Of a stretch of DNA of 64,000 bases, positions 31,234 through 48,359 are shown piece after piece; within the stretch, counting starts at the first letter, position 1, and every line of letters starts with the position of its first letter. Position numbers and translations under genes: made by a program. The notes under the pieces are model-generated. The model had not been told where the DNA came from. It did not search any database and saw only the letters and a program-made list of their open reading frames with translations. The stretch spans positions 4,858,029-4,922,028 of the forward strand of contig NZ_CP007440.1 of assembly GCF_001579845.1 (NCBI RefSeq), given 5' to 3'. This DNA is from Rhodoplanes sp. Z2-YC6860. Its GTDB lineage: Bacteria; Pseudomonadota; Alphaproteobacteria; Rhizobiales; Xanthobacteraceae.

Positions 31234-31611
31234 ATGGCTGCGCATCGTGAAGGCGATCCCCACAACGAGCAGTTCAGCTCTGCCCGGGAACCTGGACGCG
31301 GGTATCATGACATCGGGGGCCTCGAGGCGGGCGCGATCGAGCCGAACCTTTCCGAGACCCGTCCGTGGGAGAAGTTGTCTATCGCACTAGGCAATGTTCT
31401 TGGGGCCGGAGGCGCCAAGCTCGTCCGAACCGATGAAGTCCGGCGCAAGCGCGAGGAGCTCGGCGTCGAACTCTATAACGAGCTCGGGTACTTCGAGCGC
31501 GGAACCGAGTCGCTCTGCCGTCTCCTCATCGAAAGGGGCCTGATCGACGCTACCGAGCTCGAAGCCCGCATGAAGACGATCGCAACCCGAATTGCGGAGG
31601 AAGGCCGGTGA
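31234..31611 (+). CDS. N-terminal-half beta-subunit of a nitrile hydratase/thiocyanate hydrolase-like enzyme
   Basis: 125 residues matching the N-terminal half of nitrile hydratase beta: YHDIGGLEAG near residue 24, then the helical part ELGYFERGTESLCRLLIERG and LIDATELEARM. In thiocyanate hydrolase this half is a separate beta subunit, and the RRKREELG stretch recalls that protein. The next gene encodes the missing SH3-like half, starting in a 4-bp overlap, so the two are translationally coupled. The start at 31234 has AAGGTCGAGA upstream. Alternative: split-beta nitrile hydratase of the toyocamycin type. Confidence 0.75.
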   Translation: MAAHREGDPHNEQFSSAREPGRGYHDIGGLEAGAIEPNLSETRPWEKLSIALGNVLGAGGAKLVRTDEVRRKREELGVELYNELGYFERGTESLCRLLIERGLIDATELEARMKTIATRIAEEGR

Positions 31612-31919
31612 GTTCCGAGCAAGATCCTCGGTTCGCCGTCGGCAATCAGGTGAGGGTCATAAGGTCGAATCCCCCAGGCCACCGCCGTACGCCCTTCTAC
31701 ATCCGCGGCAAAACCGGCGTTATCGAGCGCGACTGCGGACGGCATCGCAATCCGGAAGAGCTCGCTTACGGCTGGACCGGGGAGCCCCTGAAGCGGCTCT
31801 ATCGGGTGCGGTTCATGCAGACTGAGGTCTGGCCGGACTACAGCGGCAACCCGACAGATACGATCGACGTCGACATCTACGAGCACTGGCTGACGCCGAC
31901 CACGGCCGCATACCTGTAA
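31608..31919 (+). CDS. SH3-like C-terminal-half beta-subunit of a nitrile hydratase/thiocyanate hydrolase-like enzyme
   Basis: 103 residues forming the SH3-like barrel of nitrile hydratase beta. Landmarks are FAVGNQVRVI, TPFYIRGKTGVIERDCG and the end RFMQTEVWPDYSGNP followed by DIYEHWL. It starts with GTG inside the stop of the previous gene, so subunit amounts are probably matched. A gap of 22 bp separates it from the catalytic subunit. Length and composition fit the alpha subunit of thiocyanate hydrolase better than a full beta chain. Confidence 0.8.
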   Translation: MSSEQDPRFAVGNQVRVIRSNPPGHRRTPFYIRGKTGVIERDCGRHRNPEELAYGWTGEPLKRLYRVRFMQTEVWPDYSGNPTDTIDVDIYEHWLTPTTAAYL

Positions 31920-31941
31920 AGGATTTCCAGGAGAACAGATA

Positions 31942-32595
31942 ATGAGTGGCGGCCACACGCATCCTCACGATCACGATCACGACAAGCCTGGAGCCCACCC
32001 GCTCCAACCTGACGACGTTTCGCCCGCGAGTCGCTACGAGCTGATGACTCTCGCGATGCAAGAGCTTCTCATCGAGAAGGGAGTGCTTACATCGGAGCAG
32101 ATCAGACGTGGACTCGAGGTCATCGATTCCTGGCAACCCTCGCGTGGCGCCGACGTGGTTGCCCGCGCCTGGCTCGAGCCGGAGTTTAAACAGCGCTTGC
32201 TCAAAGACGGCAGTGCAGCCGTTGCCGACTTCGGCGTCGATATGGGTGTGGTCAAGCTAACCGTGGTCGAGAACACGGAGCACGTTCATAACGTGATCGT
32301 TTGCACGCTTTGCTCCTGCTACCCTCGCGGGCTGCTCGGCCTGCCCCCCGACTGGTACCGCTCGAAGCGTTATCGCGCGCGCATCGTGCGGGAGCCGCGC
32401 AAGGTACTCGCCGAGTTTGGCACCGAGATTCCCGATGGCGTCACCGTGCGAGTGCATGACAGCCTTGCCGACCTGCGTTATCTCGTGCTTCCGCGCCGGC
32501 CGGAGGGCACTCAGGGTTGGTCGCGAGAGCAGCTCGCCTCGATCGTGAACCGGGACGCCATGGTGGGCGTCGGGCTGCCGAAGGTGCAGGCCTAG
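31942..32595 (+). CDS. Cobalt-type catalytic subunit of a nitrile hydratase/thiocyanate hydrolase-like enzyme
   Basis: 217 residues. The metal claw is VCTLCSCYPR, where Thr in CTLC indicates a Co(III) rather than Fe(III) site. It is followed by GLLGLPPDWYRSKRYRARIVREPR, the conserved family segment. The residue after CSCYP is Arg, while true nitrile hydratases usually have Trp there; in thiocyanate hydrolase gamma I recall an Arg at this position, which supports SCN- hydrolysis. The His-rich N-terminus (HTHPHDHDHD) may help metal loading. No activator gene for cobalt insertion is adjacent. Reaction: hydration of nitrile, or thiocyanate to carbonyl sulfide and ammonia. Confidence 0.85.
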   Translation: MSGGHTHPHDHDHDKPGAHPLQPDDVSPASRYELMTLAMQELLIEKGVLTSEQIRRGLEVIDSWQPSRGADVVARAWLEPEFKQRLLKDGSAAVADFGVDMGVVKLTVVENTEHVHNVIVCTLCSCYPRGLLGLPPDWYRSKRYRARIVREPRKVLAEFGTEIPDGVTVRVHDSLADLRYLVLPRRPEGTQGWSREQLASIVNRDAMVGVGLPKVQA

Positions 32596-34560: not shown

Positions 34561-34720
34561 ACTCTCAATGCGTCCGGTACAAAAATCTCAGGCCAATGGC
34601 GCCCGAGGGCCGAACGCATTTCCTCGTTAGAGCGGTTCACTTCTTTTCTGAATCGCTGGGGATTCCGCTGGGCTTCGAATTGTGATTCAAGCTGCTGGCT
34701 GGGTTGGAGGCCAGCAGCTC

Positions 34721-35080
34721 ATGACCCGACCTCTGTCCAATGATCTGCGTGAGCGTGTCGTTGCGGCGGTGCGGAACGGTGAGAGCTGCCGGACGGTGGC
34801 TTCGCGGTTCGGCGTGGCGGTGTCGTCGGTGGTGAAGTGGTCTCAGCGCTATCGGACGACTGGCTCAGTGTCGCCGAGCAAGATGGGTGGATATCGCAAG
34901 CCGGTGCTCGATCCGCATCGGGCCTTCATCCTGGAGCGCATCAGACAGACCCCGCATCTGACCCTGCATGGGCTGAAGGACGAACTTGCCGCGCGTGGGG
35001 TAAAGGTCTCGCACAATGCCGTGTGGCTGTTCCTGCGGCGCGAAGACCTGCGGTTCAAAAAAAACACTGTTCGCGCTTGA
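34721..35080 (+). CDS. IS630-family transposase, N-terminal part (OrfA)
   Basis: 119 residues with a helix-turn-helix that binds the element ends: LSNDLRERVVAAVRNGESC and RTVASRFGVAVSSVVKW, followed by a second winged-helix region (HLTLHGLKDELAARG). Translation ends soon after the A8 run with KKNTVRA. Ribosomal slippage of -1 at AAAAAAAAC would join it to the catalytic part. The start at 34721 follows GGAGG at some distance. Confidence 0.9.
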   Translation: MTRPLSNDLRERVVAAVRNGESCRTVASRFGVAVSSVVKWSQRYRTTGSVSPSKMGGYRKPVLDPHRAFILERIRQTPHLTLHGLKDELAARGVKVSHNAVWLFLRREDLRFKKNTVRA

Positions 35081-35669
35081 ACAGGCCCGGGCCGACATCG
35101 CCCGCAGACGAAAGCGCTGGCGATCCTGGCAGGCCGGTCTCGATCCACGGCGTTTGGTCTTCATCGACGAAACCTGGATCAAGACCAGCATGGCCCCACT
35201 GCGCGGATGGGGACGCAAGGGCGATCGCCTGCGAGCTTACGCGCCGCATGGTCATTGGCGGACGCTGACCTTCCTCGGCGCGCTCCGCCACGACGGCCTC
35301 ACAGCCCCTTGCGTGTTCGATGGCCCGATCAACGGCGAGTGCTTCCGAGCCTATGTCCAGCAGCAACTCGTTCCCGCACTGAAGGCCGGCGATATTGTCG
35401 TCATGGACAACCTCGGAAGCCACAAGGCTGCCGTGCTGCGACAGATCATAAGAGCAGCCGGAGCCAGGCTCTGGTACCTGCCGCCCTACTCGCCGGACCT
35501 CAATCCGATCGAGCAGGCCTTCGCCAAGATCAAACATTGGATGCGCATGGCTCAAAGGCGCACCATCGACGATGTCTGGCGCCAAATCGGCAGCCTCGTC
35601 ACAACCATAGGCCCCCGCGAATGCAGCAACTACTTCGCAAACGCCGGATACGCTTCCGTCAAATTGTGA
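35016..35669 (+). CDS. IS630-family transposase, catalytic part (OrfB, by -1 frameshift)
   Basis: Coherent coding starts at about 35058 in the -1 frame: KKTLFALEQARADIARRR. The DDE catalytic triad is recognisable as FIDETWIKTSM (first Asp), VVMDNLGSHKA (second Asp) and YSPDLNPIEQAFAKIK (Glu/Asp), as in IS630/Tc1-mariner enzymes. The ATG at 35016 lies before the slippage point in this frame and is probably not the natural start; the active product is a fusion of about 316 residues. Confidence 0.88.
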   Translation: MPCGCSCGAKTCGSKKTLFALEQARADIARRRKRWRSWQAGLDPRRLVFIDETWIKTSMAPLRGWGRKGDRLRAYAPHGHWRTLTFLGALRHDGLTAPCVFDGPINGECFRAYVQQQLVPALKAGDIVVMDNLGSHKAAVLRQIIRAAGARLWYLPPYSPDLNPIEQAFAKIKHWMRMAQRRTIDDVWRQIGSLVTTIGPRECSNYFANAGYASVKL

Positions 35670-35880: not shown

Positions 35881-36519
35881 ATGGAACCAAACATGCAGGC
35901 GAAGGGCTCAACAGCCGAAACGGAAGCTCCCCAGCATCTCCGCACGCGCGGTCACTCGGGGAAGCTCGCCGCTATAGCCGGCGTCCTCATGTATGTCTCC
36001 TACGGCTGGGCCGCATCGCAGTGGACGAATCCTTGGCTCGTCGTGGCCGCCCTGATCATGGGCACGTTCCTTCCGTTTTACGCACGCGGAACCAACCAGA
36101 TCGACAACGTGCTGGTCGCCTCAAGCTCGCTGGTCACTGCCGGTAGGTTTGGGCGCTATATCGCTCAGTTGCTCTTCAACCTGTTCCTGTTCACTTTGCT
36201 GATCGAAGGCACGGTTATCAGCCATGAGAGCATCGCGCCGATAGGAGGCATATTGGGCGCCGCCGCGTTCACCACGCTGGTGTCGCAAGGCGGCCAATAT
36301 GTCGCCGTGCTACTTGCGTCGAAGGGGTTGGGCAATCGAGACGCCAACGTGCTCGTCTCTCTTTGCGTTACCGTCGTGTTCACCGCGTTCGCGATGCTGG
36401 GCTATGCGGGTGTTCGCGATGCATTCAGAATCGTCAGCCTTACGGTCGGCGGTCTGATGTTCGTCACGGGCCTCGTCCAAGACTTTCGCCGGCTGCGCCG
36501 ACGTCGCGCTTTAGTTTAA
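35881..36519 (+). CDS. Integral membrane protein of unknown function
   Basis: 212 residues with about six hydrophobic segments, for example LAAIAGVLMYVSYGWAA, LVVAALIMGTFLPFYA, LLFNLFLFTLLIEGTVI and VLVSLCVTVVFTAFAML. The N-terminal 25 residues and the C-terminal RRLRRRRALV are charged and probably cytoplasmic. A second possible start is at M5. No family recognised. It sits at the left end of the carbamoyltransferase/methyltransferase/signalling block. Confidence 0.7.
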   Translation: MEPNMQAKGSTAETEAPQHLRTRGHSGKLAAIAGVLMYVSYGWAASQWTNPWLVVAALIMGTFLPFYARGTNQIDNVLVASSSLVTAGRFGRYIAQLLFNLFLFTLLIEGTVISHESIAPIGGILGAAAFTTLVSQGGQYVAVLLASKGLGNRDANVLVSLCVTVVFTAFAMLGYAGVRDAFRIVSLTVGGLMFVTGLVQDFRRLRRRRALV

Positions 36520-36715
36520 AAACAATCGATAAGTACCAGAAGTTGTACAACTTTGGCTCGTTGAAGTCGAAGTTCCAGCGACGTAATTAACCATTCGTTA
36601 ATTCTTTCCTTTCTTCTACGAATCCTTCCGACTAAAATTAATTTTTACCGTGCTGCCGGGAACGCTCGCGCGTGGCGCGACGCCCGCTTCCTCCAGTCGG
36701 ACAGTAGAGTGGAAT

Positions 36716-37768
36716 ATGGTGATACGTAGAGCGCTCACCAAAGCGACCGACACGATCCCGAAGCACGCAATCTCGCTTGAAGATTTCACCCGAGAAGCCA
36801 TCGAAGCCTGCTTCGGTCTGGCTGAAGCCTTCGAACGCTCCCCGACTTCAGCCTATTCATCGCTGGCCGACGGACGGGTCGCCGCCATTCTCTGGTATCA
36901 ACAATCGTTCCGAACACGCATTGGGTTCGAGGTCGCGATGCTTCGTCTCGGCGGCCGCATCACCGGATTTCCGGAACCCAGCAGCAGCCGCTCCAACGGC
37001 TTCTATCAAGAATCCCTCGAGGACGTCGTCCGCTTCGGCGGCGCCATCGTCGATTGCATTATCATGCGGCACTATGAGAAGGGTGCCCTGGCGCGCGCGG
37101 CGGCAGCATCGCCTGTTCCGGTGCTCAGCGGCGGTGATGGTTTCGGCGAGCATCCGAGCCAAGCGCTTGGCGACCTTTATCACCTCCGTAAATCCTTCGG
37201 CCGCATCGACGGCTTGAAAATCGGCATCGTCGGCGATCTCGAATGGCGGGCACTGCGCTCGCTCGCGATCGGCCTTTCGAAATTCGACACCGAGCTCTAC
37301 ATCCTGCCGCCACCGGGCAAGACCGGTATTCCGCCGGACGTACGGGCGTCGCTTGCCGGAAATGGAATGCATCCGAAAACGGCCACAGACATCAACGAAC
37401 TGCTTTCGGTCTGCGATGCCGTCACCACGCTCGGCATCGACCAGAGCGACTTCGACAAGGCCAAGTCGGAAAAAGCCAAAGCCATCTCAACGCCGTCCTC
37501 ACACAAGATCACCGCCCAAGGACTCGCCAGGGCCGGGCATGACGTTGCAGTCATGCATGTCGGACCGATCACCGACGAGATCGACCGCTCGATCGACGGA
37601 ACTACCGCGGCCCACTACTTCGACGAAGCGCGCGATGGCATGTGGATGCGGATGGCCGTCCTGGCCTCGATCTTTGATCGGAGCGCCGCCGTCAGCGAAC
37701 GTTCGCGCCCCGTGCGGATCGTACGCGAAAATTGGTTTCCGAAGCCCAAGGAGCTTGTGGCGTCCTGA
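36716..37768 (+). CDS. Divergent aspartate/ornithine carbamoyltransferase-like protein
   Basis: 350 residues with the transcarbamylase two-domain order. The carbamoyl-phosphate loop is SFRTRIGFEVAMLRLGG where the family has STRTR, so Phe replaces Thr. Other conserved parts remain: IMRHYEKGA, GEHPSQALGDLYHL (family HPTQALLDL) and MHVGPITDEID (family MHPGP). The second-substrate segment is changed: the usual RxQxER element reads LGIDQSDFDKA. It likely keeps carbamoyl-phosphate binding but uses a different acceptor, or has lost catalysis. A methyltransferase gene follows 29 bp later. A weak GTG at 36650 could start a longer form. Confidence 0.75.
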   Translation: MVIRRALTKATDTIPKHAISLEDFTREAIEACFGLAEAFERSPTSAYSSLADGRVAAILWYQQSFRTRIGFEVAMLRLGGRITGFPEPSSSRSNGFYQESLEDVVRFGGAIVDCIIMRHYEKGALARAAAASPVPVLSGGDGFGEHPSQALGDLYHLRKSFGRIDGLKIGIVGDLEWRALRSLAIGLSKFDTELYILPPPGKTGIPPDVRASLAGNGMHPKTATDINELLSVCDAVTTLGIDQSDFDKAKSEKAKAISTPSSHKITAQGLARAGHDVAVMHVGPITDEIDRSIDGTTAAHYFDEARDGMWMRMAVLASIFDRSAAVSERSRPVRIVRENWFPKPKELVAS

Positions 37769-37797
37769 GAATTGCCGCGTCGGAAGGAGTATGCGTC

Positions 37798-38835
37798 ATG
37801 ATGACCACGGACGATCTCTTCGTAGCCGCCTGCAAAATCGGACGTTCGGCACCGGAATTGGCCGATCTCCTGCGCCGCATCTATACCTCGGAGGACTACT
37901 CGGCATGGCGAGGAACGCTCGCCGAACGCGTCCCGTTCCGGCCGGCCGATAAGGGCGAATACGCCGCGCTCGAAGCAGCAGGGCTCGGCCGCGACGGCTC
38001 CCTCGCCGTCAAGATCAACATGATGGAAACCCGCATCTTCATAACGGACGGCGTATGGACGCGCCCCGAAAATCGCGTCTTCCCCTTCTGTGACGAGAGC
38101 GCGACGTTGCTCACCCAGGTCCGGGCGAGAAAACTGGATGAATGGGCCGACGTGGTGGTCGATCTCGCGACCGGGTGCGGTCACAACATCATCGCCATGA
38201 AGGGCGACGCCAGCAAGGCCGGCTTCGACATCAATCCCAGAGCGATCGTCTACGCGGTCATGAACCGGGCCCTCAACGTTCAAGACGGCCGCGATCTCGT
38301 CTTCTGCAGCAACGACATCCGCGATGGCATCCCCAAGCTGTTCGATCCGGGCGCCGGCACCAAAGTGCTGTTCGTCGCGAACATGCCGTTCGCTCCGGCG
38401 CCGCCTCGTTCGGAGGTGCCGGTCACCACCAACGGCGGCAAGTCCGGCATCGACCTCCAGCTCGCGACCTTCACCGCGATCCGCCGTTTCGCGAAAGAAA
38501 CCGGCGCGCAGGTCAGAGCGGTCATCCTGGGCATTACCGCAGGCAATGCCGCTGATGGCGTCTGGGATCTCGCCTCGGAAGCGCAAACCCACCTGGGCGG
38601 CGACGCGGCTTGGAATATCCTGTCCGACGAGAAGATCTTCCGGATCAACGGCGTTCGACAGATCGAGAATCCGTCCCCTGTCGTACCCGCCCTTAGGCGT
38701 TTCGGCTCATGCCGGCTCTACTACGACGCGGATCGGGTCGACACGATGAGTCAACAGTTTGGCGAAGTCGGAGCCGAACTCCTGCGCTCCGGACGGCCGG
38801 ACTTGGCCTACGGCGTGGTCGACGCAAGACTCTGA
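37798..38835 (+). CDS. SAM-dependent methyltransferase-like protein
   Basis: 345 residues. Motif I of class I methyltransferases is VVDLATGCGHN, followed by an acid at the end of strand 2 (GFDINPRAI) and a motif-IV-like VANMPFAPAP. The last is NPPF/NPPY in N- or Q-methyltransferases, here NMPF, so the substrate may be an amide or amine nitrogen or something new. The N-terminal 100 residues are not recognised. The start at 37798 has AAGGAG. It is 29 bp downstream of the carbamoyltransferase-like gene, and the two probably act in one pathway. Confidence 0.7.
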   Translation: MMTTDDLFVAACKIGRSAPELADLLRRIYTSEDYSAWRGTLAERVPFRPADKGEYAALEAAGLGRDGSLAVKINMMETRIFITDGVWTRPENRVFPFCDESATLLTQVRARKLDEWADVVVDLATGCGHNIIAMKGDASKAGFDINPRAIVYAVMNRALNVQDGRDLVFCSNDIRDGIPKLFDPGAGTKVLFVANMPFAPAPPRSEVPVTTNGGKSGIDLQLATFTAIRRFAKETGAQVRAVILGITAGNAADGVWDLASEAQTHLGGDAAWNILSDEKIFRINGVRQIENPSPVVPALRRFGSCRLYYDADRVDTMSQQFGEVGAELLRSGRPDLAYGVVDARL

Positions 38836-38978
38836 GCGCCTGGCCGGACGGCGTCTTCGGCCAGCAGCGTTTGGTGTCCATGGCGCTGGTGAGGCGCGAA
38901 TGACCCGCCCGCCGGCCGCGAGGAAGATCGTCGGCAACGCCTGGATTTTCACGCGCTGGGCAGTCTCACGATTCCGCT

Positions 38979-39294
38979 TCAAGTGGTCGGGAGATCATTG
39001 TGAACCACCTTGACCGCGTTATTCTTGGAGGCTGCCTCGTCCGCCCTGCAGCCGTACTTCGGCGGCTGGACCATGGCGCAGCCGGCCGGGACCCGCTGCT
39101 CGTAGGCCAACACGATATCGAGAGAATGTCAGGATTGACCCAAAGCTTGGTGATCAGGGCATCCGCGATCGCATTGACCGTCTCCTTCGATGGGATTTTT
39201 AGACCTGGCGGCAAGGATTCAGGCGCCCCTGTCCGGAGGCGGGGCCCGGCAGAAACAACAGAAAAGCAGCCGTCAGAACATCAATCTTACGCAT
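38979..39294 (-). pseudogene. Degraded small exported protein
   Basis: On the minus strand the ATG at 39294 opens a signal peptide (KIDVLTAAFLLFLPGPASG). Coding then needs two frame changes: LPPGLKIPSKETVNAIADA with LITKLWVNPDILS, then DIVLAYEQRVPAGCAMVQP with KYGCRADEAASKNNAVKVV, ending at TGA (38979-38981). The pieces share protein-like composition and a Cys pair. It could be chance, but three consecutive coherent segments argue for a decayed gene. Confidence 0.4.
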
Positions 39295-39346
39295 AGATTT
39301 CCATAGATTTCAGAACCTCCGGACCAAAACCGAGCGAAGTCCGCAA

Positions 39347-41611
39347 ATGGCCCGGCGTCAAGCGAGGGTCGCGCCTCGGCAAAGGTTAACAATCTACAAA
39401 CGTCCCCCGCCGACCTCCTTGCAAGCTCAAAAAGAATATCTTTATCGGTGGCCTGTAAAACCGCACGCAGGAGAGGCCCCCTTGCGTGCCGCTGTTGATA
39501 CCTTCGTGGAGCATGTCTTCAAGCGCCACCCGGCAGCTTTCTGGCCTGGCGTCGTGGCAGGGCTTGGTGCGTTCGCTTGCCTCATCGCGGATCGGAGCGG
39601 CACGGCGGCCGCCCTGCTGACGGCGGCGACAATTCTGCTCAGCGCAAGCGGCCGTATCCGCGTTGCCGACTCATCCGGTATCGACGCAGTGCAGCGCGCT
39701 TCGGAGATGGAGAAAGCCCTCGCCCACATGAGCCAGGGCATCGTGCTCGTCGACGAGCACAACGACATCGCCGTCATCAACAAGCGCGCCACGGAGCTGC
39801 TCCACTTGCCCGAGGAGTTCGTGACATCGCGCCCGTCTTATCCGGAAGTCCTTGAATATCAAAAGCAGAGCGGCGAGTACGACAACGCCTCGAAAGCCGT
39901 GAAGGACTTCGTCGCCGCTGGCGCCAAGGTCGAGAAGTTCGGCATCTACGAACGCGCGACGCGCGACGGAAAGACCCTCGAAATCCACAGCGTGCCGTTC
40001 ATCGGGCCCGATGGCCAGCCACGCGGATTTGTCAGGTCGTATTTGGAAGTGACCGAGCGCGCCGAAGCCAAGCGAAACCTTGAGGAAACTCTCCGGCGCT
40101 TGGAAGAGGAACGCGATCGCCGCGAGATATTCTTCGCAAACATCAGCCACGAGATGCGGACGCCCCTGAACGGCATCATCGGCATGATCGAACTCCTCAA
40201 GGACTTGGAACTGGACGATACCCACCACGAATACTTCCGTTCGATCTGCGCCTCCGCCGACCACCTGCAGGGCCTGATAAACGACACCCTCGACATGTCG
40301 AAGATGCGCATCGAAGGCGGCTTGGCGCTCGATCGGGCGCCATTCGACATCGAACGCGCACTCAACGAAGTGATCTCAAATCAGGGGCCGCGCGCCCGCT
40401 CGAAGGGTATCGCCCTCACCGCCGAAATAGACCCGCGTGTTCCGCGCGCACTGATCGGAGACGAGCTTCGCGTTAAACAGATCATGTTCAATCTGATCGG
40501 AAACGCGATCAAGTTCACGGATGCAGGCCAAGTCGTCGTACAGCTGTCCCCGGCGGGGCAAACCGACGAAGAAAAGGCCGGGATCGAATTTCGGGTCGAA
40601 GATACCGGCGTCGGTATCGCCGCCGACGACATCGCAAAACTCTGCACGCCATTCACACAAGTCGACGGCTCCCTGTCCCGTCGCCACGAGGGCAGCGGCC
40701 TGGGTCTGTCGATCTCCAAGGGATTGGTCGAACAGATGGGCGGAAAGCTCTCCATCGAGAGCCAGATCAATCGCGGCTCGACCTTCTCGTTCGCGGTCAG
40801 TTTCCCGCGCGACAACAGCGGCAAACCTGCAGCGCGCCAGTACGCTCGCAACGTCAACGCCCGCTATTCGATCCTGGTCGCCGAAGACAATGAAACGAAC
40901 CAGACTGTCGCCCGTGAAATACTCAAGCGAATGGGCCACGAAGTCGACGTCGTGGTCGACGGCCTACAGGCCGTCCAGGCCGCAGCGCGCAAGCGCTACG
41001 ACCTGATCCTGATGGACCTGATGATGCCGCATCTTAACGGCTTCCAGGCCGCAACGAAGATCCGCGCGCTGCCGACCGGCAGCGCAAACACGCCGATCCT
41101 CGCTCTGACTGCGAGCACTCTCAAGGGACAGATGGATCGCATACGCGGTGCCGGCATGAACGGCGCGGCGGGCAAGCCATTCACGCGCGCCCAGCTGCGG
41201 TCCGCCATCGAACGCGTGATGGCGGGCGTCGAGACAGAGTCTTCGCCCGAGCAGCCTGAGGACGTGACAGCCCGCGGTGACGAGAACGAGCCGCAATGCG
41301 ACCGCACCATCCTGAACGCATTCATGGAAGAGATGGGTGAAGAAGCGGGTCGCGAGATGATCGAGACCTTCATGCGGACCACCCAAAACAAGATCGCCGC
41401 ACTGGCGGTGATCGCGAAGAACGCATCCGCACTGGAGCGGGAGGCGCATTCCCTTAAATCGAGCGCCGGCATCTTTGGATTCCGCGCCCTTTCGGCCAAA
41501 GCCGCCGAAATCGAGATCAACGCACGCAAGATCGACGGGAATGACATCGCTCCCACCTTGGATGAGCTGCGGCGCACGTTTGAGGAAACGCGCCGCAGTA
41601 TCGCGGCATAG
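39347..41611 (+). CDS. Hybrid sensor histidine kinase with PAS, receiver and Hpt domains
   Basis: 754 residues from the ATG at 39347. Order: a membrane pair at about residues 64-100, a PAS domain (about 118-240, MSQGIVLVDEHNDIAVIN), the phospho-acceptor box with His268 (FFANISHEMRTPLNG), an ATP-binding domain (NLIGNAIKFT, DTGVGIA, GSGLGLSI), a receiver with Asp557 (LILMDLMMPHLNG), and a C-terminal Hpt domain with His701 (REAHSLKSSAG). All phosphorelay residues are intact. A TTG at 39482 with AGGAG upstream is a plausible shorter start. The EAL regulator begins 10 bp downstream and is the expected partner. Confidence 0.94.
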   Translation: MARRQARVAPRQRLTIYKRPPPTSLQAQKEYLYRWPVKPHAGEAPLRAAVDTFVEHVFKRHPAAFWPGVVAGLGAFACLIADRSGTAAALLTAATILLSASGRIRVADSSGIDAVQRASEMEKALAHMSQGIVLVDEHNDIAVINKRATELLHLPEEFVTSRPSYPEVLEYQKQSGEYDNASKAVKDFVAAGAKVEKFGIYERATRDGKTLEIHSVPFIGPDGQPRGFVRSYLEVTERAEAKRNLEETLRRLEEERDRREIFFANISHEMRTPLNGIIGMIELLKDLELDDTHHEYFRSICASADHLQGLINDTLDMSKMRIEGGLALDRAPFDIERALNEVISNQGPRARSKGIALTAEIDPRVPRALIGDELRVKQIMFNLIGNAIKFTDAGQVVVQLSPAGQTDEEKAGIEFRVEDTGVGIAADDIAKLCTPFTQVDGSLSRRHEGSGLGLSISKGLVEQMGGKLSIESQINRGSTFSFAVSFPRDNSGKPAARQYARNVNARYSILVAEDNETNQTVAREILKRMGHEVDVVVDGLQAVQAAARKRYDLILMDLMMPHLNGFQAATKIRALPTGSANTPILALTASTLKGQMDRIRGAGMNGAAGKPFTRAQLRSAIERVMAGVETESSPEQPEDVTARGDENEPQCDRTILNAFMEEMGEEAGREMIETFMRTTQNKIAALAVIAKNASALEREAHSLKSSAGIFGFRALSAKAAEIEINARKIDGNDIAPTLDELRRTFEETRRSIAA

Positions 41612-41621
41612 GAGCGTGACG

Positions 41622-42839
41622 ATGATCGCTGGCAAGCTCGCACAATCGATGGGACTCAGACGCGCGCCGACCAAACGCCTGCTCGTGATCGACGATGACG
41701 AGATCCAGCGCATGCACGTGCGCGGACTCGCCCAGACCGTCGGCTATACGGTCGACCCCGCAGCATCGATCGCAGAAGCGCAGCACCAGATGGCTGTGTG
41801 CACCTACGACGTCATGGTGGTCGACCTCGCTCTTGATGGCGAGGATGGGATCGAGGTTCTGCGCGCCATCAAGGCGGCCGGCCAGAATCCCGAAATCGTC
41901 GTCATATCCGGCAGTGAAGATCGCATCCGTGACGCCGTGGTCGGCTACGGCCGCACCATCGGGCTCTCCATGCTGGGCGAGCTTCGCAAGCCGATGCAGC
42001 CCACCCAATTCAAGGCCTACCTGAGCAACGCCTCACAACGCGCAGTCCGAAAGGCAGAGCGCGCGGCCGCTCCGGATATCCTTCGGCCCGAGCTCATGCG
42101 CGCCATCTCCGATGGCGCCATCTACGCGTCGTACCAGCCGCAGATCGATCTTGCCTCCGGCCTGATGGTCGGCGCTGAAGCGCTCGCGCGCTGGCAATCC
42201 CCCATCCACGGCAGCGTCCCACCTGACGTCTTCGTCGCTGCGGCGGAACGTCACGGCCTCGAAAGACAGCTCACCGACCTGATCCTCAGTCAGGCGCTGC
42301 AGGCAGCGAAACCATGGGTCGCTCGTTGTCCGAACTTCCGCGTCGCCGTCAACGTTCCGGCGACGGTATTTTCCAAGATAGAGTTCGCGGACAGCGTCTT
42401 CGCGATGCTCAGCTGGGTCGGCCTGCCGCCAGCCAACCTGACCCTCGAACTGACGGAATCGGGCGCGCTAGGGGACATTGCCGCCAGCATCGACGTCATG
42501 TGTCGGCTCCGCATCGGCGGCGTGCACCTGTCGCTCGACGACTACGGCACAGGCTTCTCGTCTCTCGCTCGCCTGCGCGCCTCTCCGGTCGGAGAGCTCA
42601 AGATCGACCGGTCGTTCGTGACCAACATGGATACGGACAACTATTCGAATATCATCGTGCAGGCGACTATCGCGATGGCCAAAAAGATTGGCATGCGCAT
42701 CGTCGCCGAAGGCATTGAGACCAAGGCTGTGGCCGACATGCTCGCACGCGAAGGCGCCGACATCGGCCAGGGTTACCTCTACGCCAGGCCCATGGTCGCC
42801 GCAGAGATCGCACCACGCCTTCCAGCAAGCTGCTCCTGA
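41622..42839 (+). CDS. Response regulator with EAL domain (cyclic-di-GMP phosphodiesterase)
   Basis: 405 residues. The receiver has LLVIDDDEIQ and phospho-acceptor Asp68 (VMVVDLALDGEDG). The EAL domain is complete: VGAEALARWQSP, the Asn in AVNVPATVFS, Glu in LELTESG, the acid pair in LDDYGTGFSS, Lys in ELKIDRSFV, AEGIET and the closing QGYLYARPM. It should hydrolyse cyclic-di-GMP to pGpG when active. GGAGCG precedes the ATG. The gene is 10 bp after the hybrid kinase, which should phosphorylate it, and 88 bp before the ABC importer genes. Confidence 0.94.
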   Translation: MIAGKLAQSMGLRRAPTKRLLVIDDDEIQRMHVRGLAQTVGYTVDPAASIAEAQHQMAVCTYDVMVVDLALDGEDGIEVLRAIKAAGQNPEIVVISGSEDRIRDAVVGYGRTIGLSMLGELRKPMQPTQFKAYLSNASQRAVRKAERAAAPDILRPELMRAISDGAIYASYQPQIDLASGLMVGAEALARWQSPIHGSVPPDVFVAAAERHGLERQLTDLILSQALQAAKPWVARCPNFRVAVNVPATVFSKIEFADSVFAMLSWVGLPPANLTLELTESGALGDIAASIDVMCRLRIGGVHLSLDDYGTGFSSLARLRASPVGELKIDRSFVTNMDTDNYSNIIVQATIAMAKKIGMRIVAEGIETKAVADMLAREGADIGQGYLYARPMVAAEIAPRLPASCS

Positions 42840-42927
42840 GCTTGGAGTGCCGGCAAAGCATTCGTTAAGAAGTGAGGCATTACAAGGATTACAAGGATAC
42901 CGGAACGGTCTTCAAGGATTCAACGTC

Positions 42928-44529
42928 ATGTACCTGCGCAGGACTACCGGCTCCCTCCTCCTGCTCGCCGCCCTGACCATCACCCCGGCTTCGGCTGGCG
43001 AAATCTTCCGCATTGCCGGCAAGGGAGATTTCAAGTCGCTTGATCCGTTTTCCTTGAACGAAATCCTGACGCTGGGCCTCCATGGCCAAATCAGCGAAGG
43101 ATTGACCAAGCGGGATCGTGACCTGAAGATCGTGCCCGGTCTCGCCGTATCTTGGGAAACTCCGGAGCCGACCCGCTGGCGTTTTCACCTGCGCCGCGGC
43201 GTCAAATTCCAAAGTGGCGACGACTTCACTGCCGATGACGTCGTGTTCTCCGCAGATCGCGTCCGCGCCCAGGGCAGCGACGTCAAAAACATGCTCCCGG
43301 CCGATGTGAAGAGCGTGCTCAAGGTTGACGATTACACGGTCGACTTCGTGCTTGAGCATTCCAACCCGATCCTCAACGCGAGCTTCGACACTTGGTACAT
43401 GGTCTCGAAGAAATGGGCCGAGCGCGTCGGGGCTGTGGCTCCTGTTTCCGCGGCACAGAGTGGCTACGCCTCCACTCACGCGAACGGCACCGGTCCGTTC
43501 TTGGTCGCTGACCACGTCCCCGGCTTGAAGACGACCTTCGTCCCCAACCCGCACTGGTGGGGCAAGCCGCAGCACAATTTCGACCGCGTCGAGTATGTGA
43601 CGATTGCCAACGACGCCACTCGGGTTGCCGCATTGCAGTCCGGCGAAGTTGACATGATCGACCCCGTGCCGCTGCAGGACATCGAGCGCCTTCGCGGCGC
43701 CGGCCTCAAAGTGCTGACGGGCCCGGAAACCCGCTCGATGTTCTTCGGCTTCGATCAAAGCCGCGATGAGCTGCTGGTGTCGGACATCAAGGGCCGCAAC
43801 CCGTTCAAGGACGAGCGCGTTCGCCGTGCCTTTGCGCTGGCATTGAACCTCCAGGCCATCCACGACAAGGTGATGCGAGGAAATTCTGTAATTGCCTCGT
43901 CAATCGTTTCGCCACTGGTGTTTCCGGACGTCAAGAACATTGACCGTCAGCCATACGACCCCGAGGAGGCCAAGCGTCTGCTGGCACAAGCGGGTTATCC
44001 GCACGGATTTTCATTCGGTCTTGCGTGCACAAATGATCGGTACGTTCGCGACGCGGATCTTTGTTCAGTCGGCGCATCCATGCTGGCCAAGGTCGGCCTG
44101 CGTGCTCAACTCGACATCCAGCCGAAGGCTCGTTTCTTCGCCCAGGTCGGCGCGGCGGGTGGCTACAAAGTCCCCGGCGCTTTTCTGCTCGGCTGGGTCG
44201 CCGTCTCCAACGACGCTCTCGATCCGCTGTTCAATTTGATTATGACCAGGGACGGCAAGGGCCAGGGCTCATATAACCTTGGCGGCATCTCGAATGCCAA
44301 GATCGACGCGCTCGGAGCGCAGATCCGCACCGAAACCGACAACCTCAAGCGCCACGGCCTGATCATGCAGGCCCTCCAGACCGTGCGAGACCACACTCTG
44401 GTGGTCCCGCTGCATCAGCAGACCCTCGCATGGGGCACCGCTGCAGACGTCACCGTCGAACAACGGGCCGACGGCCAGATCCAATTCTCGACCTACTCCA
44501 AGCATCCGACCACCGTTGGAGCAAAATGA
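42928..44529 (+). CDS. ABC transporter substrate-binding protein (SBP_bac_5, peptide/nickel type)
   Basis: 533 residues. A signal peptide (GSLLLLAALTITPASAG) precedes the family core: KSLDPFSLNEI, EGLTKRD, WRFHLRRGVKFQSGDDFTADDVVFS, and later NPFKDERVRRAFALALN and YDPEEAKRLLAQAGYPHG. It is a cluster C periplasmic binder for oligopeptides, metal chelates, or other small solutes. The start at 42928 fits the signal peptide; the longer frame from 42688 overlaps the EAL gene. It is followed at 6 bp by the first permease gene. Confidence 0.93.
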   Translation: MYLRRTTGSLLLLAALTITPASAGEIFRIAGKGDFKSLDPFSLNEILTLGLHGQISEGLTKRDRDLKIVPGLAVSWETPEPTRWRFHLRRGVKFQSGDDFTADDVVFSADRVRAQGSDVKNMLPADVKSVLKVDDYTVDFVLEHSNPILNASFDTWYMVSKKWAERVGAVAPVSAAQSGYASTHANGTGPFLVADHVPGLKTTFVPNPHWWGKPQHNFDRVEYVTIANDATRVAALQSGEVDMIDPVPLQDIERLRGAGLKVLTGPETRSMFFGFDQSRDELLVSDIKGRNPFKDERVRRAFALALNLQAIHDKVMRGNSVIASSIVSPLVFPDVKNIDRQPYDPEEAKRLLAQAGYPHGFSFGLACTNDRYVRDADLCSVGASMLAKVGLRAQLDIQPKARFFAQVGAAGGYKVPGAFLLGWVAVSNDALDPLFNLIMTRDGKGQGSYNLGGISNAKIDALGAQIRTETDNLKRHGLIMQALQTVRDHTLVVPLHQQTLAWGTAADVTVEQRADGQIQFSTYSKHPTTVGAK

Positions 44530-44535
44530 GGCGCC

Positions 44536-45513
44536 ATGGTCGTCCTCGCTCTCCGCAGGCTGACGCAGACTGCAGCCGTTCTCGCGGTGGCCTGCGTCCT
44601 TGCCTTTGCGATGGCGAAGAATGCCGGAGACCCGGTCGCGCAGATGCTCGGCAACAGCGCGACCACCCAGGATCAAGCGGATCTGCGACATAAGCTCGGT
44701 CTCGATCGTCCGGCTGCCGAGCAAATGTGGCGCTACGCATCTTCAATGGCCACCGGCGACTTCGGCACCTCCTACCAGTACGGCCGCCCGGTGCTGGCGC
44801 TGGTCGCCGAGCGCATCCCGGCGACCGCCGAGCTCTCCATCGTGGCCGGCGTCCTTTCGTTGCTGATCGCCCTGCCGTTGGGAATGTGCGCCGCGGAAAA
44901 GCCGGATACTTTCGCTGCGCGTGCTGGGATGGCATTCGCTTCCATCGGCGTTTCGCTCCCGACCTTCATGCTGGGCACGCTCGCGGTGATCTTTCTTGCC
45001 GGTCGGTGGCGCCTGTTTCCCTCGTTCGGCCGGGGCGAAGTTATCGACCTCGGATTCTGGAGCACTGGTCTGCTGACAGCGTCGGGCTGGCGTTCCATTG
45101 TCTTGCCGGCGTGCACGCTCGCATTGTTTCAGGCAGCCACGATCGCAAAGATCGTCCGCGCCGAAGCACTCGCGGCCTACGCAGCCCCACACATCGTCGC
45201 CGCACGCGCCCGGGGCCTTCCTGAGGCCGTCGTGCGCCGTCACGTCGCGCGCACGATAACAGTCCCCGTCGCGACCGTTACCGCAGTCCAGTTCGGGACT
45301 ATCGTTGCTTACGCCATCGTGACCGAGTCCGTATTCCAATGGCCCGGGCTCGGTTCTCTGCTGATCGGCGCCGTGCGCTCCGCAGACGTTCCGGTGCTTG
45401 CAGCATACGTCGTGCTTGCGGCCGGCTTCTTCACCGCCATGAGCTTCGTGGTCGACGTTCTGCAGATTCGTCTCGACCCGCGGGTCCGCGATGCCGCGGA
45501 GACGATGCCATGA
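44536..45513 (+). CDS. ABC transporter permease (DppB/NikB-like)
   Basis: 325 residues with six membrane segments. The family segments are LRHKLGLDRPAAEQMWRY, GDFGTSYQYGRPV and the ATPase-contact loop after GYAAPHIVAARARGLPEAVV-like sequence (YAAPHIVAARARGLP), ending near QFGTIVAYAIVTESVFQWPG. It forms the inner-membrane pore together with the next permease, whose start overlaps its stop by 4 bp. The substrate follows that of the adjacent binding protein. Confidence 0.92.
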   Translation: MVVLALRRLTQTAAVLAVACVLAFAMAKNAGDPVAQMLGNSATTQDQADLRHKLGLDRPAAEQMWRYASSMATGDFGTSYQYGRPVLALVAERIPATAELSIVAGVLSLLIALPLGMCAAEKPDTFAARAGMAFASIGVSLPTFMLGTLAVIFLAGRWRLFPSFGRGEVIDLGFWSTGLLTASGWRSIVLPACTLALFQAATIAKIVRAEALAAYAAPHIVAARARGLPEAVVRRHVARTITVPVATVTAVQFGTIVAYAIVTESVFQWPGLGSLLIGAVRSADVPVLAAYVVLAAGFFTAMSFVVDVLQIRLDPRVRDAAETMP

Positions 45514-46364
45514 CGACCGCTGCGCTACGTTCCGTAACCTTATCCACGCGCTCCGCACTCGCGGCGGTGCTCGTGCTGTTTCTGCTGCTCGCATTCCTTG
45601 CTCCGTTGATCGCCCCGCAGAACGTTCTGGATCCGGCTGCAATCGATGTCCTCGACGCCGAGACGGCTCCAGGTTGGGCTCACTGGTTCGGAACAGATAT
45701 GCAGGGGCGCGATATGCTGTCGGCAATTCTCTACGGCCTGCGCATCTCAATCGCGGTGGCTCTCGTTGCAATGATCATGTCCTGCATCCTCGGATCGCTG
45801 CTCGGCGCCGCGGCAGGCGCGTTCGGCGGATGGACCGACGCCATTGTGATGCGCGCTGCCGATCTCCAACTCGCGTTTCCGGCGCTTCTGACGGCCCTCC
45901 TGATTGAGGGCGTGATCGCCGCTGCGACCGGCGGACGACCGGACGCCTTCGGCTTCTGGACAGTCGCCTTTTCCATCGGTTTGACTTACTGGGCGCAATA
46001 CGCGCGCGCAGTGCGCTCAGCTGCGATCGCCGAATCGACCAAGGACTACGTCCTCGCCGCCCGTATGTCGGGCATGTCGACATGGAGGCTTCTCACCCGG
46101 GAGATCCTGCCCAACGCAGCGGTGCCGCTCGCTCCGATCGCAGCTGTGAACTTCGCCTGCGCAATCATGGCGGAAGCCACACTCTCATTCCTGGGCATTG
46201 GTCTTCAGCCGTCGCAACCCTCGCTCGGCACGCTCTTGCGTTTGGGCAACGACGCCGCATTGAGCTTGCCCTGGGTCCTCGCCTTTCCTGCTGCAGTCCT
46301 CGCCATTCTGACCGTGTCCGCAAACCTGTTCGGCGACGAAATATCGCGCGGAACATCGCGATGA
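45510..46364 (+). CDS. ABC transporter permease (DppC/NikC-like)
   Basis: 284 residues with about six membrane segments. The N-terminal segment LAAVLVLFLLLAFLAPLIAP and GTDMQGRDMLSAILYGLRIS are standard for DppC/OppC proteins. The EAA-type loop is DYVLAARMSGMSTWRLLTRE with ILPN. It starts in an ATGA overlap with the previous permease and overlaps the first ATPase by 4 bp, so the operon is translationally tight. Confidence 0.92.
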   Translation: MTTAALRSVTLSTRSALAAVLVLFLLLAFLAPLIAPQNVLDPAAIDVLDAETAPGWAHWFGTDMQGRDMLSAILYGLRISIAVALVAMIMSCILGSLLGAAAGAFGGWTDAIVMRAADLQLAFPALLTALLIEGVIAAATGGRPDAFGFWTVAFSIGLTYWAQYARAVRSAAIAESTKDYVLAARMSGMSTWRLLTREILPNAAVPLAPIAAVNFACAIMAEATLSFLGIGLQPSQPSLGTLLRLGNDAALSLPWVLAFPAAVLAILTVSANLFGDEISRGTSR

Positions 46365-47146
46365 ACGAAGCTCTCAAAATCACAGAGCTCAGCGTGGACT
46401 ACGCGACGCCCTATGGCCGTAAGCCAGCCTTGCGCGAGGTAACGCTCGCCCTGACTGAAGGGCGCGTCCTGGGCATTGTTGGCGAGTCAGGCTCCGGAAA
46501 GTCGACGCTTCTACACGCCATTGCACGTTTGCTGCCTGCCGCCGCCACGATCACCACCGGAACGATCGAGTGCCTTGGCACACGAATAGACGCGATGACC
46601 CCGCGCGAATTCGCTCCGTTCCGCGGGCGGATAATATCCGCAATGGTCCAGGACGCCGGATCTGGTCTGCACCCGTTGATGACGATCGGCGCCCAGATCG
46701 ACGAAACGCTTCGCTATATCGCGCCAGAGACCACTTCAGGCCGGTCCTCGGCCGCGGATCTGATGAAGAGGGTCGGTCTCGACCCGGCGCTTGCGGACCG
46801 CCATCCGCACCGCCTGTCCGGCGGACAACGCCAACGCGTCGGGCTTGCTCTTGCGCTCGCTGGCGCACCCAAGATCCTGCTCGCCGATGAGCCAACCGCC
46901 TCGCTCGACACCATCGGACGGCTCGAATTTGCCGAACTCCTCCGCGATACCGTCAGAACTGCCGGCATTGCCGCCATGCTGGTGTCACACGACGTAGGCC
47001 TGATCGGCGCAGTAGCCGATGACATTGCAGTGGTTCTTGACGGCCGCGTCGTCGAACGGGGAAGCGTCGGTGGCATACTGCGGGCACCACAGCACGGCTA
47101 CACGCAAACCCTGATCGCGGCCTCCGCGCGTGCGAGCGCCGCATGA
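46361..47146 (+). CDS. ABC transporter ATP-binding protein (DppD/NikD-like)
   Basis: 261 residues. Walker A is GESGSGKST, the signature is LSGGQRQR, Walker B is ILLADEPTASLD and the switch His is in VSHDVG. It ends shortly after the nucleotide domain and lacks the C-terminal extension of OppD/DppD, matching the shorter NikD/NikE size, which hints at metal or small-solute import. It overlaps the next ATPase gene by 4 bp, and the two should form a heterodimer. Confidence 0.93.
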   Translation: MNEALKITELSVDYATPYGRKPALREVTLALTEGRVLGIVGESGSGKSTLLHAIARLLPAAATITTGTIECLGTRIDAMTPREFAPFRGRIISAMVQDAGSGLHPLMTIGAQIDETLRYIAPETTSGRSSAADLMKRVGLDPALADRHPHRLSGGQRQRVGLALALAGAPKILLADEPTASLDTIGRLEFAELLRDTVRTAGIAAMLVSHDVGLIGAVADDIAVVLDGRVVERGSVGGILRAPQHGYTQTLIAASARASAA

Positions 47147-47916
47147 TCGAGCTCCGCGGCGTGACCCACCGATACGCCCGCCGGTCGCTCTTCGACGGTC
47201 TGCTGGGTCGTCCGGAGCACGCACCGGTCGTCGAAGACGTAAGCCTGACCATCGCGCCCGGCGAGACGCTCTGCCTGGTGGGCCAGTCAGGCGCCGGCAA
47301 ATCTACCGTCGGCCGCATCGCCGCGGGCATCCTGGCTCCTTCCGCCGGCGTCGTGATCGGCAAGCCCAGGGTTAGGATGGTTTTCCAGGATCATGCCGGC
47401 AGCCTCAATCCACGCCGCCGGATCGGCGCCATGCTAGCGGACGCACTCACGCCGGACGACGGACGGGCCCCCGCCGATCTGCTGCGCGAAGTAGGTCTTC
47501 CGCCGGACTTCGCCGAGCGCCGGCCGCATGAGATGTCCGGCGGACAGCGCCAGCGCGTCGCCATCGCCCGCGCGCTCGCCGGCCTGCCGGACCTGCTGGT
47601 GCTGGACGAGCCGACCTCGGCGCTCGACGTCTCAACCCAAGTCGAGATACTCGGCCTGCTCCGTTCGGTGAAAGAAGCTGGCCGCCTGTCGTTCCTGCTG
47701 ATCACCCACGATCTGTCGGTCGCGGGCAGGCTGGCCGATCGCATCGCGGTGATGCGCAGCGGCCGCGTCCTGGAAACCGGCCCTGCGTCCCAGATCCTTA
47801 CGCCGGGCGGAGCAACCGATCCCTATACCTGCGCGCTCGTCCAGGCATGGCAGCGGATGGCCCCGCCATTGCCGGTGCACGCTAGAGCTCGCGTACCGGC
47901 GTACGCAGCCGCCTGA
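47143..47916 (+). CDS. ABC transporter ATP-binding protein (DppF/NikE-like)
   Basis: 257 residues. Walker A is GQSGAGKST, signature MSGGQRQR, Walker B LLVLDEPTSALD and switch His in ITHDLS. The N-terminal VTHRYARRSLFDG resembles DppF/NikE rather than DppD. The four transporter genes from 44536 onward overlap or are separated by a few bases. About 240 bp of gene-free sequence follow, leading to tRNA-Gly. Confidence 0.92.
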   Translation: MIELRGVTHRYARRSLFDGLLGRPEHAPVVEDVSLTIAPGETLCLVGQSGAGKSTVGRIAAGILAPSAGVVIGKPRVRMVFQDHAGSLNPRRRIGAMLADALTPDDGRAPADLLREVGLPPDFAERRPHEMSGGQRQRVAIARALAGLPDLLVLDEPTSALDVSTQVEILGLLRSVKEAGRLSFLLITHDLSVAGRLADRIAVMRSGRVLETGPASQILTPGGATDPYTCALVQAWQRMAPPLPVHARARVPAYAAA

Positions 47917-48156: not shown

Positions 48157-48230
48157 TGGAGCGGGTGAAGGGAATCGAACCCTCGTATTCAGCTTGGAAG
48201 GCTGCTGCTCTACCATTGAGCTACACCCGC
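48157..48230 (-). tRNA. tRNA-Gly (TCC)
   Basis: Acceptor GCGGGTG/CACCCGC, anticodon loop CTTCCAA with anticodon TCC, T-loop GTTCGAT, encoded CCA. 74 nt. Confidence 0.97.
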
Positions 48231-48273
48231 GCCGGGCAGAACCAGGTCATAGGACCGGGGCATCAAGCGAAGA

Positions 48274-48359
48274 TGGTGGGAGAGGTAGGACTCGAACCTA
48301 CGAAGGCGTAAGCCAGCGGATTTACAGTCCGCCCCCTTTGCCACTCGGGACACTCTCCC
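48274..48359 (-). tRNA. tRNA-Tyr (GTA)
   Basis: Acceptor GGGAGAG/CTCTCCC, anticodon GTA in CTGTAAA, a long variable arm as expected for tRNA-Tyr, and encoded CCA. 86 nt. Confidence 0.97.

What the first reader, a model, noticed from the sequence alone, without database searches (positions are those of the whole stretch)
35881..47916. Carbamoyltransferase-like/methyltransferase pair beside a phosphorelay, EAL protein and ABC importer
Directly downstream of insertion sequences lie a membrane protein, a divergent transcarbamylase, a SAM methyltransferase, a hybrid kinase, an EAL response regulator and five importer genes, all on the plus strand. I know of no described system with this combination. 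The kinase, EAL and importer genes are especially close. One reading is import of a small molecule that is sensed and lowers cyclic-di-GMP, with the enzyme pair making or modifying the ligand.
Basis: partly seen in the sequence, partly recalled or inferred. Interest (0 to 1): 0.75.

Follow-up and report, generated by a model that had tools for sequence, protein, structure and literature searches.

The report
Odd carbamoyl enzyme beside signalling genes
A soil bacterium carries a pair of unusual enzymes, one of them a changed copy of a housekeeping enzyme that has lost its normal target site, next to ordinary signalling and transport genes; the neighbourhood as a whole is not conserved in the relatives examined, but the enzyme's closest relatives sit next to other genes for the same bacterial messenger molecule.

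Summary
The ten genes are real and in the order described, but behave as three modules. (1) B-C: a second transcarbamylase that keeps the carbamoyl-phosphate site but has lost aspartate-binding residues (K84, R229, Q231 in E. coli numbering), and an orphan methyltransferase. The one clear methyltransferase homologue found (Bradyrhizobium nitroreducens TSA1, 44% identity) also adjoins a divergent transcarbamylase, near exporter, nucleoside hydrolase and ATP-grasp genes. (2) D-E: a complete phosphorelay feeding a c-di-GMP phosphodiesterase, a recurring pair. (3) F-J: a peptide/nickel-type importer. Of 14 importer loci fetched from relatives, 13 keep the importer operon and none has A, B, C, D or E. 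The modules meet beside tRNA-Gly, where three same-genus genomes carry other content. One surprise revives part of the idea: the four nearest relatives found for transcarbamylase B (35-40% identity, about two independent lineages) all adjoin an orthologous membrane GGDEF-EAL protein. Best reading: B-C makes or tailors a small carbamoylated, methylated metabolite (inferred); D-J is an independent sensing/uptake operon. Substrates are unknown and nothing was measured.

The parts
34682..35669 (+). IS630-type transposase in two overlapping frames (HTH ORF 34682-35080, DDE_3 ORF 35016-35669)
35881..36519 (+). A: orphan membrane protein, 212 aa, three segments above threshold in a simple hydropathy scan
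   Evidence: no Pfam/NCBIfam match; own copy only among 149 family genomes; no plasmid match; hydropathy
36716..37768 (+). B: divergent transcarbamylase (ATCase branch) with carbamoyl-phosphate residues kept and aspartate-binding residues lost
37798..38835 (+). C: orphan class I methyltransferase with NMPF where NPPY-type enzymes have NPPY (motif position by eye)
39347..41611 (+). D: hybrid histidine kinase PAS-HisKA-HATPase-REC-Hpt; the SHEMRTP, DLMMP and HSLKS relay motifs are present
41622..42839 (+). E: REC-EAL response regulator with EALARW, LELTES, DDYGTG, KIDR and EGIE motifs present
42928..44529 (+). F: SBP_bac_5 substrate-binding protein
44536..45513 (+). G: ABC permease
45510..46364 (+). 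H: ABC permease
46361..47146 (+). I: ABC ATPase
47143..47916 (+). J: ABC ATPase
48157..48230 (-). tRNA-Gly(tcc) that bounds the variable segment

Best explanation
The stretch is a composite of three modules gathered at a variable chromosomal site next to tRNA-Gly. B and C form a two-enzyme cassette for a small metabolite: B transfers the carbamoyl group of carbamoyl phosphate to an amine that is not aspartate, its acceptor loop carrying D-x-S-D in place of the ATCase R-x-Q-x-E-R, and C methylates the same or a related scaffold. D and E are a four-step phosphorelay (His-Asp-His-Asp) that switches a c-di-GMP phosphodiesterase. F-J is a peptide/nickel-type importer, probably co-transcribed with D-E. 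Shown: gene content, residues kept and lost, relay and EAL motifs present, no conserved ten-gene linkage in the relatives searched, a transcarbamylase beside the one clear C homologue. Inferred: enzyme activities, a common product of B and C, co-transcription of D-J, assembly from separate sources.
For: B keeps S52, R54, T55, R105, H134, Q137 and R167 but has Y, G and D at K84, R229 and Q231 and V at P266; the genome's second match, which I take as its PyrB, keeps K84, R167, R229, Q231 and P266. B scores 190.3 bits against an ATCase cut-off of 236.95. C's one clear homologue (45%, 44%) adjoins a divergent transcarbamylase in TSA1, with MATE, IU_nuc_hydro, FlK-type thioesterase and ATP-grasp genes nearby. 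A distant C relative in Mycetohabitans (hhalign 96%, E 2.3e-9 over 177 columns) lies between a NodU-type carbamoyltransferase and an NRPS. Importer operon without A-E in 13 of 14 loci; the 14th has neither the permeases nor A-E. Of five rlmB loci fetched, the three in which tRNA-Gly was found, all same-genus, have other content there.
Against: The window and TSA1 transcarbamylases share only 23% identity and are not each other's nearest kin, and the gene order is reversed. No other biosynthetic gene adjoins B-C in the window. B's nearest relatives go with GGDEF-EAL genes; no C homologue was seen in those four loci. No tyrosine integrase within 570 kb and no direct repeat of the tRNA end beyond 14 bp in the window, so 'island' is not shown. 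No activity or product has been measured.
Confidence: 0.5

Rival explanations
1. The transcarbamylase is functionally tied to c-di-GMP signalling: its carbamoylated product (or the enzyme itself) is read by, or sets, an adjacent EAL protein, and the window is a variant with a phosphorelay REC-EAL and an added methyltransferase.
For: All 4 non-window members found of the D-x-S-D transcarbamylase clade (G012, G883, G741, G774, two families) directly adjoin an orthologous membrane GGDEF-EAL gene, 49-98% identical. None of 8 other transcarbamylase loci examined (L001, L002, L050, L080-L083, L006) has a match to that GGDEF-EAL at E 1e-5; L001 and L002 have only about 1-1.5 kb of flank and L082/L083 differ at 5 bases, so they are one case.
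Against: Three of the four are one genus, so the independent lineages are about two, and G012 is convergent. In the window the EAL gene is of another architecture, 3.9 kb away behind C and D. B is only 35-40% identical to the clade; the grouping has moderate support (80/93) with a long-branch warning, and B reads HVGP where the clade reads HPLP.
Confidence: 0.2
2. All ten genes are one uptake-sense-modify system: the importer brings in a molecule, the kinase senses it, c-di-GMP falls, and B-C modify the ligand.
For: Same strand; D-J tightly packed. In G883 the GGDEF-EAL-transcarbamylase pair has a 30%-identical SBP_bac_5 gene just upstream, an ABC ATPase further up and a D-like hybrid kinase (33%, 286 bits) about 4 kb downstream.
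Against: 0 of 14 importer loci have A-E; no locus with the full set was found; 511-bp gap C-D; D has no recognised periplasmic sensor; G741, G774 and G012 lack the SBP and kinase matches.
Confidence: 0.1
3. B is a catabolic or purine-pathway pseudo-ATCase such as ureidoglycine transcarbamylase, and C is an unrelated neighbour.
For: B is ATCase-like and has lost RxQ like published pseudo-ATCases (PMC4016543, passages; PMC4581275, two sections).
Against: B's HVGP and GID match none of the three pseudo-ATCase groups in that table; no carbamate kinase or allantoin-pathway gene among A-J; the one clear C homologue also adjoins a transcarbamylase.
Confidence: 0.12
4. B and C are drifting remnants with no function, stranded beside an IS element.
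For: Sporadic distribution and a nearby IS630 element.
Against: Intact frames, the carbamoyl-phosphate residues S52, R54, T55, R105, H134 and Q137 kept, methyltransferase core conserved with TSA1.
Confidence: 0.08

Closest known systems
Aspartate transcarbamylase PyrB (PDB 1ml4 is the best solved match)
   Same: Both Pfam domains, SxRT, HPxQ, R105 and R167; 30-32% identity to own and E. coli PyrB
   Different: K84, R229 and Q231 lost, HP[LG]P reads HVGP; the genome also has a copy with the canonical residues
Pseudo-ATCases including ureidoglycine transcarbamylase (PMC4016543, passages and Table 1 seen)
   Same: ATCase-like, RxQ lost, carbamoyl-phosphate motifs kept
   Different: HVGP and GID fit none of groups 1-3; no carbamate kinase among A-J
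Diaminopropionate/diaminobutyrate transcarbamylases of viomycin, zwittermicin and padanamide clusters (PMC4581275, tool sections 7 and 10 and passages; PMC6022934, passages)
   Same: Transcarbamylase fold recruited to antibiotic biosynthesis with a changed acceptor loop
   Different: Those are OTCase-branch (TRWQ-type loop, HDLP); B is ATCase-like with D-x-S-D
Crocagin CgnI (carbamoyltransferase) and CgnL (N-methyltransferase) (PMC10070186, passages seen)
   Same: A carbamoyltransferase and a methyltransferase tailoring one small molecule
   Different: No sequence comparison was made; crocagin precursor or CgnB/C/E genes were not looked for
PvrR-type REC-EAL regulators with hybrid kinases (PvrSR/RocSR systems recalled; PvrR is the top NCBIfam hit)
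   Same: Hybrid kinase with Hpt beside a REC-EAL phosphodiesterase
   Different: 239.6 bits against the PvrR cut-off of 580
Nik/Opp/Dpp ABC importers
   Same: Five-gene SBP_bac_5 importer; 13 of 14 relatives' loci fetched have the same operon
   Different: All subunits below the equivalog cut-offs in the rows shown; substrate unknown

Membership tests
Aspartate transcarbamylase (PyrB) | SxRT and HPxQ carbamoyl-phosphate motifs, R105 | tested here: met
   SFRT, HPSQ, R
Aspartate transcarbamylase (PyrB) | RxQxxER in the 240s loop and K84 | tested here: not met
   G-I-D-Q-S-D and Y; the genome's own PyrB-like copy as positive control
Aspartate transcarbamylase (PyrB) | NCBIfam TIGR00670 cut-off 236.95 bits | tested here: not met
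   190.3 bits
Ornithine transcarbamylase | DxxxSMG loop and HCLP | tested here: not met
   aligned against the genome's own OTCase-like copy; motif definition from PMC4581275
Published pseudo-ATCases 1-3 / UGTCase | HPLA, H[ST]LP or HSLP with AIA/GX[SC]/VXP | tested here: not met
   HVGP with GID
D-x-S-D transcarbamylase clade beside GGDEF-EAL | D-x-S-D loop, loss of K84, closest sequence kin | tested here: met
   support 80/93, long-branch warning
D-x-S-D transcarbamylase clade beside GGDEF-EAL | Immediately adjacent membrane GGDEF-EAL gene | tested here: not met
   window has a REC-EAL gene 3.9 kb away instead
HemK/PrmC-type N5-glutamine methyltransferase | Family cut-off and NPPY motif | tested here: not met
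   26.9 against 162 bits for PRK14968.1-3, the only NCBIfam row; motif reads NMPF
Methyltransferase-transcarbamylase pair as in TSA1 | Methyltransferase homologue directly adjoining a transcarbamylase gene | tested here: met
   order reversed, transcarbamylases 23% identical
PvrR-type phosphodiesterase response regulator | REC + EAL with catalytic motifs, hybrid kinase adjacent | tested here: met
PvrR-type phosphodiesterase response regulator | NCBIfam PvrR cut-off | tested here: not met
   239.6 of 580
Nickel importer NikABCDE | Equivalog cut-offs | tested here: not met
   all five subunits below in the rows shown
Genomic island at tRNA-Gly | Site content differs between close relatives | tested here: met
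   3 same-genus genomes with tRNA-Gly found, of 5 loci fetched; no A-H match there, only general ABC ATPase similarity to I and J in two
Genomic island at tRNA-Gly | Integrase and direct repeat of the tRNA end | tested here: not met
   no tyrosine integrase within 570 kb (serine recombinases not searched); no direct repeat beyond 14 bp in the window

The most novel reading that the evidence does not exclude
There is an unrecognised class of transcarbamylases (D-x-S-D acceptor loop) that works with c-di-GMP enzymes: the carbamoylated product of a cationic amine is a signal or effector controlled by, or controlling, the neighbouring GGDEF/EAL protein. The window holds an offshoot in which the enzyme gained a methyltransferase partner and sits beside a phosphorelay-driven EAL regulator.
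Probability: 0.13. Interest if true: 0.78.

Novelty: new variant of a known kind. Interest (0 to 1): 0.4.

Why it matters
Transcarbamylases are easily annotated as PyrB or ArgF by domain; B and its relatives form a group that matches those domains yet lacks the residues that hold aspartate. Two neighbourhoods (transcarbamylase + methyltransferase C; transcarbamylase + membrane GGDEF-EAL) point to undescribed small molecules, and the second would link carbamoyl-phosphate chemistry to c-di-GMP signalling if it holds up in a wider survey.

Tried and rejected
Structure of C: AlphaFold2 on a two-row alignment gave mean pLDDT 42, so no fold search was run. B was not folded because its family is clear from sequence. 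The scan of genome contigs with C alone found nothing although TSA1 is in that collection and was found with the two-row profile, so such scans are insensitive. The whole-genome searches score only the top first-look candidates of each genome (5 to 18), so absences are not proofs. Weak C matches in G419, G339, G431 and G861 cover 51-123 positions; the first three neighbourhoods showed no transcarbamylase by eye among the ORFs printed; G861 was not looked at. Plasmid hits for the G883 transcarbamylase in Azospirillum and Methylobacterium were PyrB-like with the RxQxxR motif and had no GGDEF-EAL match. Of 11 plasmid records matching the G883 GGDEF-EAL protein at E 1e-100 only one covers 80% of it; the other ten begin near residue 200, i.e. 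the catalytic domains. Two viral-contig transcarbamylases at 31% were not followed. Crocagin, StdF and Pantoea PNP-1 were read in passages as analogies; the latter two have NodU-type enzymes, another family. PMC8305402 was opened and not relevant. The island idea was lowered because no integrase or repeat was found.
Full report
WHAT IS THERE. The window is G000:C1:4858029-4922028 of a one-contig 8.19-Mb genome in the same family as Bradyrhizobium nitroreducens TSA1. All ten reported genes are open on the plus strand. Domain searches confirm B as a transcarbamylase, D as PAS-HisKA-HATPase-REC-Hpt, E as REC-EAL and F-J as an SBP_bac_5 importer. A has no known family, no other copy in 149 family genomes searched, its own included, and no plasmid match. 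C matches methyltransferases only below cut-offs. D's relay motifs and E's EAL catalytic motifs are present (which residues matter is recalled). A simple hydropathy scan gives D one membrane segment, and no periplasmic ligand domain was recognised. Spacing suggests three units, A, B-C and D-J; the motif scan for promoters and terminators was no better than shuffles.

B IS A TRANSCARBAMYLASE THAT HAS LOST ITS ASPARTATE SITE. The genome has three OTCace_N matches: B and two others. Aligned with E. coli PyrB and the PyrB-like copy, B keeps S52, R54, T55, R105, H134, Q137 and R167 but has Y at K84, G at R229, D at Q231 and V at P266. Its G at L267 is also in the genome's PyrB-like copy and is no loss. 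That copy keeps K84, R167, R229 and Q231, so B is an additional enzyme. Roles of these residues are from PMC4581275 (tool sections 7 and 10). PMC4016543 (passages and Table 1) lists three pseudo-ATCase groups; B's HVGP and GID fit none. NCBIfam's ATCase model gives 190.3 bits against a cut-off of 236.95. That B therefore carbamoylates an amine other than aspartate is inference.

B'S NEAREST RELATIVES ADJOIN A c-di-GMP GENE. In 100 family genomes one other match to B passed E 1e-50, G012 at 36%. A two-row profile over 397 order genomes at E 1e-68 gave the own copy and three genomes of one genus, G883, G741 and G774. These four share 65-97% identity in the four pairs computed, and 35-40% with B. 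All carry D-x-S-D where ATCase has R-x-Q-x-E-R, and so does B. In 4 of 4 the transcarbamylase directly adjoins a membrane GGDEF-EAL gene, tandem in the three same-genus genomes and convergent in G012; the GGDEF-EAL proteins are 49-98% identical. Other neighbours differ between G012, G883 and the G741/G774 pair (by eye). Of eight other transcarbamylase loci none has a match to this GGDEF-EAL at E 1e-5, but two loci have only 1-1.5 kb of flank and two are near-identical. Grouping of B with the clade has support 80/93 with a long-branch warning. This is about two independent cases. In G883 an SBP_bac_5 gene (30% to F) lies just upstream and a D-like kinase (33%) about 4 kb downstream, the nearest thing to the window's combination that I saw; G012, G741 and G774 lack both.

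C ADJOINS A TRANSCARBAMYLASE ELSEWHERE. C was found in 1 of 11 same-genus genomes (itself), 2 of 296 family genomes (itself and G272), and, beyond itself, only as partial weak matches in 3 of 398 phylum genomes and 1 of 397 order genomes; these sets overlap. There the methyltransferase (44% identity) is followed directly by a divergent transcarbamylase and then a MATE exporter, with divergent nucleoside hydrolase, FlK-type thioesterase and ATP-grasp genes and further off an MFS transporter: it looks like a small biosynthetic cluster. The two transcarbamylases share 23% and the gene order is reversed. In the plasmid collection C's only matches at E 1e-3 were 4 records of Mycetohabitans rhizoxinica at 25% over 58%; in the two of these looked at, the methyltransferase lies between a NodU-type carbamoyltransferase and an NRPS. 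hhalign supports the relation over 177 columns (96%, E 2.3e-9), though other class I methyltransferases might also score; no control was run. The TSA1 methyltransferase found no plasmid match. This third case is suggestive only.

THE SIGNALLING AND IMPORT GENES ARE INDEPENDENT MODULES. F matched 29 of 100 family genomes at E 1e-60, own included, 36 places in all. I fetched loci from 14 of the 28 other genomes; 13 of 14 keep F-G-H-I-J in order and 0 of 14 shows an A-E homologue at E 1e-3. E's relatives at E 1e-70 reach only 36-39% in 5 of 99 other genomes; 3 of 5 have an adjacent kinase homologue, one more an Hpt match, one neither, and none an importer gene in about 4.1 kb.

THE SITE. J is followed by tRNA-Gly, tRNA-Tyr and a SpoU rRNA methylase gene. 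Of five loci fetched around that methylase gene, tRNA-Gly was found in three, all same-genus. Their adjoining content differs: an EF-Tu-like gene and tRNA-Trp in G005, ABC transporter genes in G007, nitrate-reductase-like genes in G002 (names by eye). None has an A-H match at E 1e-5; I and J have only general ATPase similarity in G007 and G002. No EF-Tu gene is in the window. No direct repeat of the tRNA end beyond 14 bp was found in the window and no tyrosine integrase within 570 kb. So the site is variable, but an integrative island is not shown.

MECHANISM. Most likely (0.5) B-C is a metabolite-tailoring cassette, and D-J a separate sensing and uptake operon. The boldest reading left open is a transcarbamylase class tied to c-di-GMP turnover.

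LITERATURE. Searches of the open library listed no report of a transcarbamylase beside a GGDEF-EAL gene or of this methyltransferase pair; subscription papers are not held. Only listings, the abstracts printed there, and the passages and sections named were seen.

Noticed in passing
L077 7213-10366, L078 5029-8242, L079 9082-12296, L027 7121-10260: A conserved pair: membrane GGDEF-EAL protein next to a transcarbamylase that lacks aspartate-binding residues, in two families; no report found in the searches made.
   Followed up: partly
L006 6187-13875 (Bradyrhizobium nitroreducens TSA1): Small cluster with MATE exporter, divergent transcarbamylase, methyltransferase, nucleoside hydrolase, FlK-type thioesterase and ATP-grasp enzyme; looks like an undescribed biosynthetic cluster.
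   Followed up: partly
L084 6022-22493 (Mycetohabitans rhizoxinica HKI 454): NodU-type carbamoyltransferase and a methyltransferase distantly like C directly upstream of a 13.5-kb NRPS gene.
   Followed up: partly
48157-48359: tRNA-Gly/tRNA-Tyr beside a SpoU methylase gene: the adjoining content differs in each of the three same-genus genomes where tRNA-Gly was found.
   Followed up: partly
35881-36519: Orphan membrane protein with no relative found in 149 family genomes or in plasmids.
   Followed up: partly
31608-32595: Nitrile hydratase beta (C-terminal part) and alpha subunit genes upstream of the IS element.
   Followed up: no
34682-35669: IS630-type transposase in two overlapping frames with an A-rich run between them, suggesting programmed frameshifting.
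   Followed up: no
L043, L047: Relatives of the REC-EAL/kinase pair lie near a gene that reads like CheR (by eye), hinting at a motility context.
   Followed up: no
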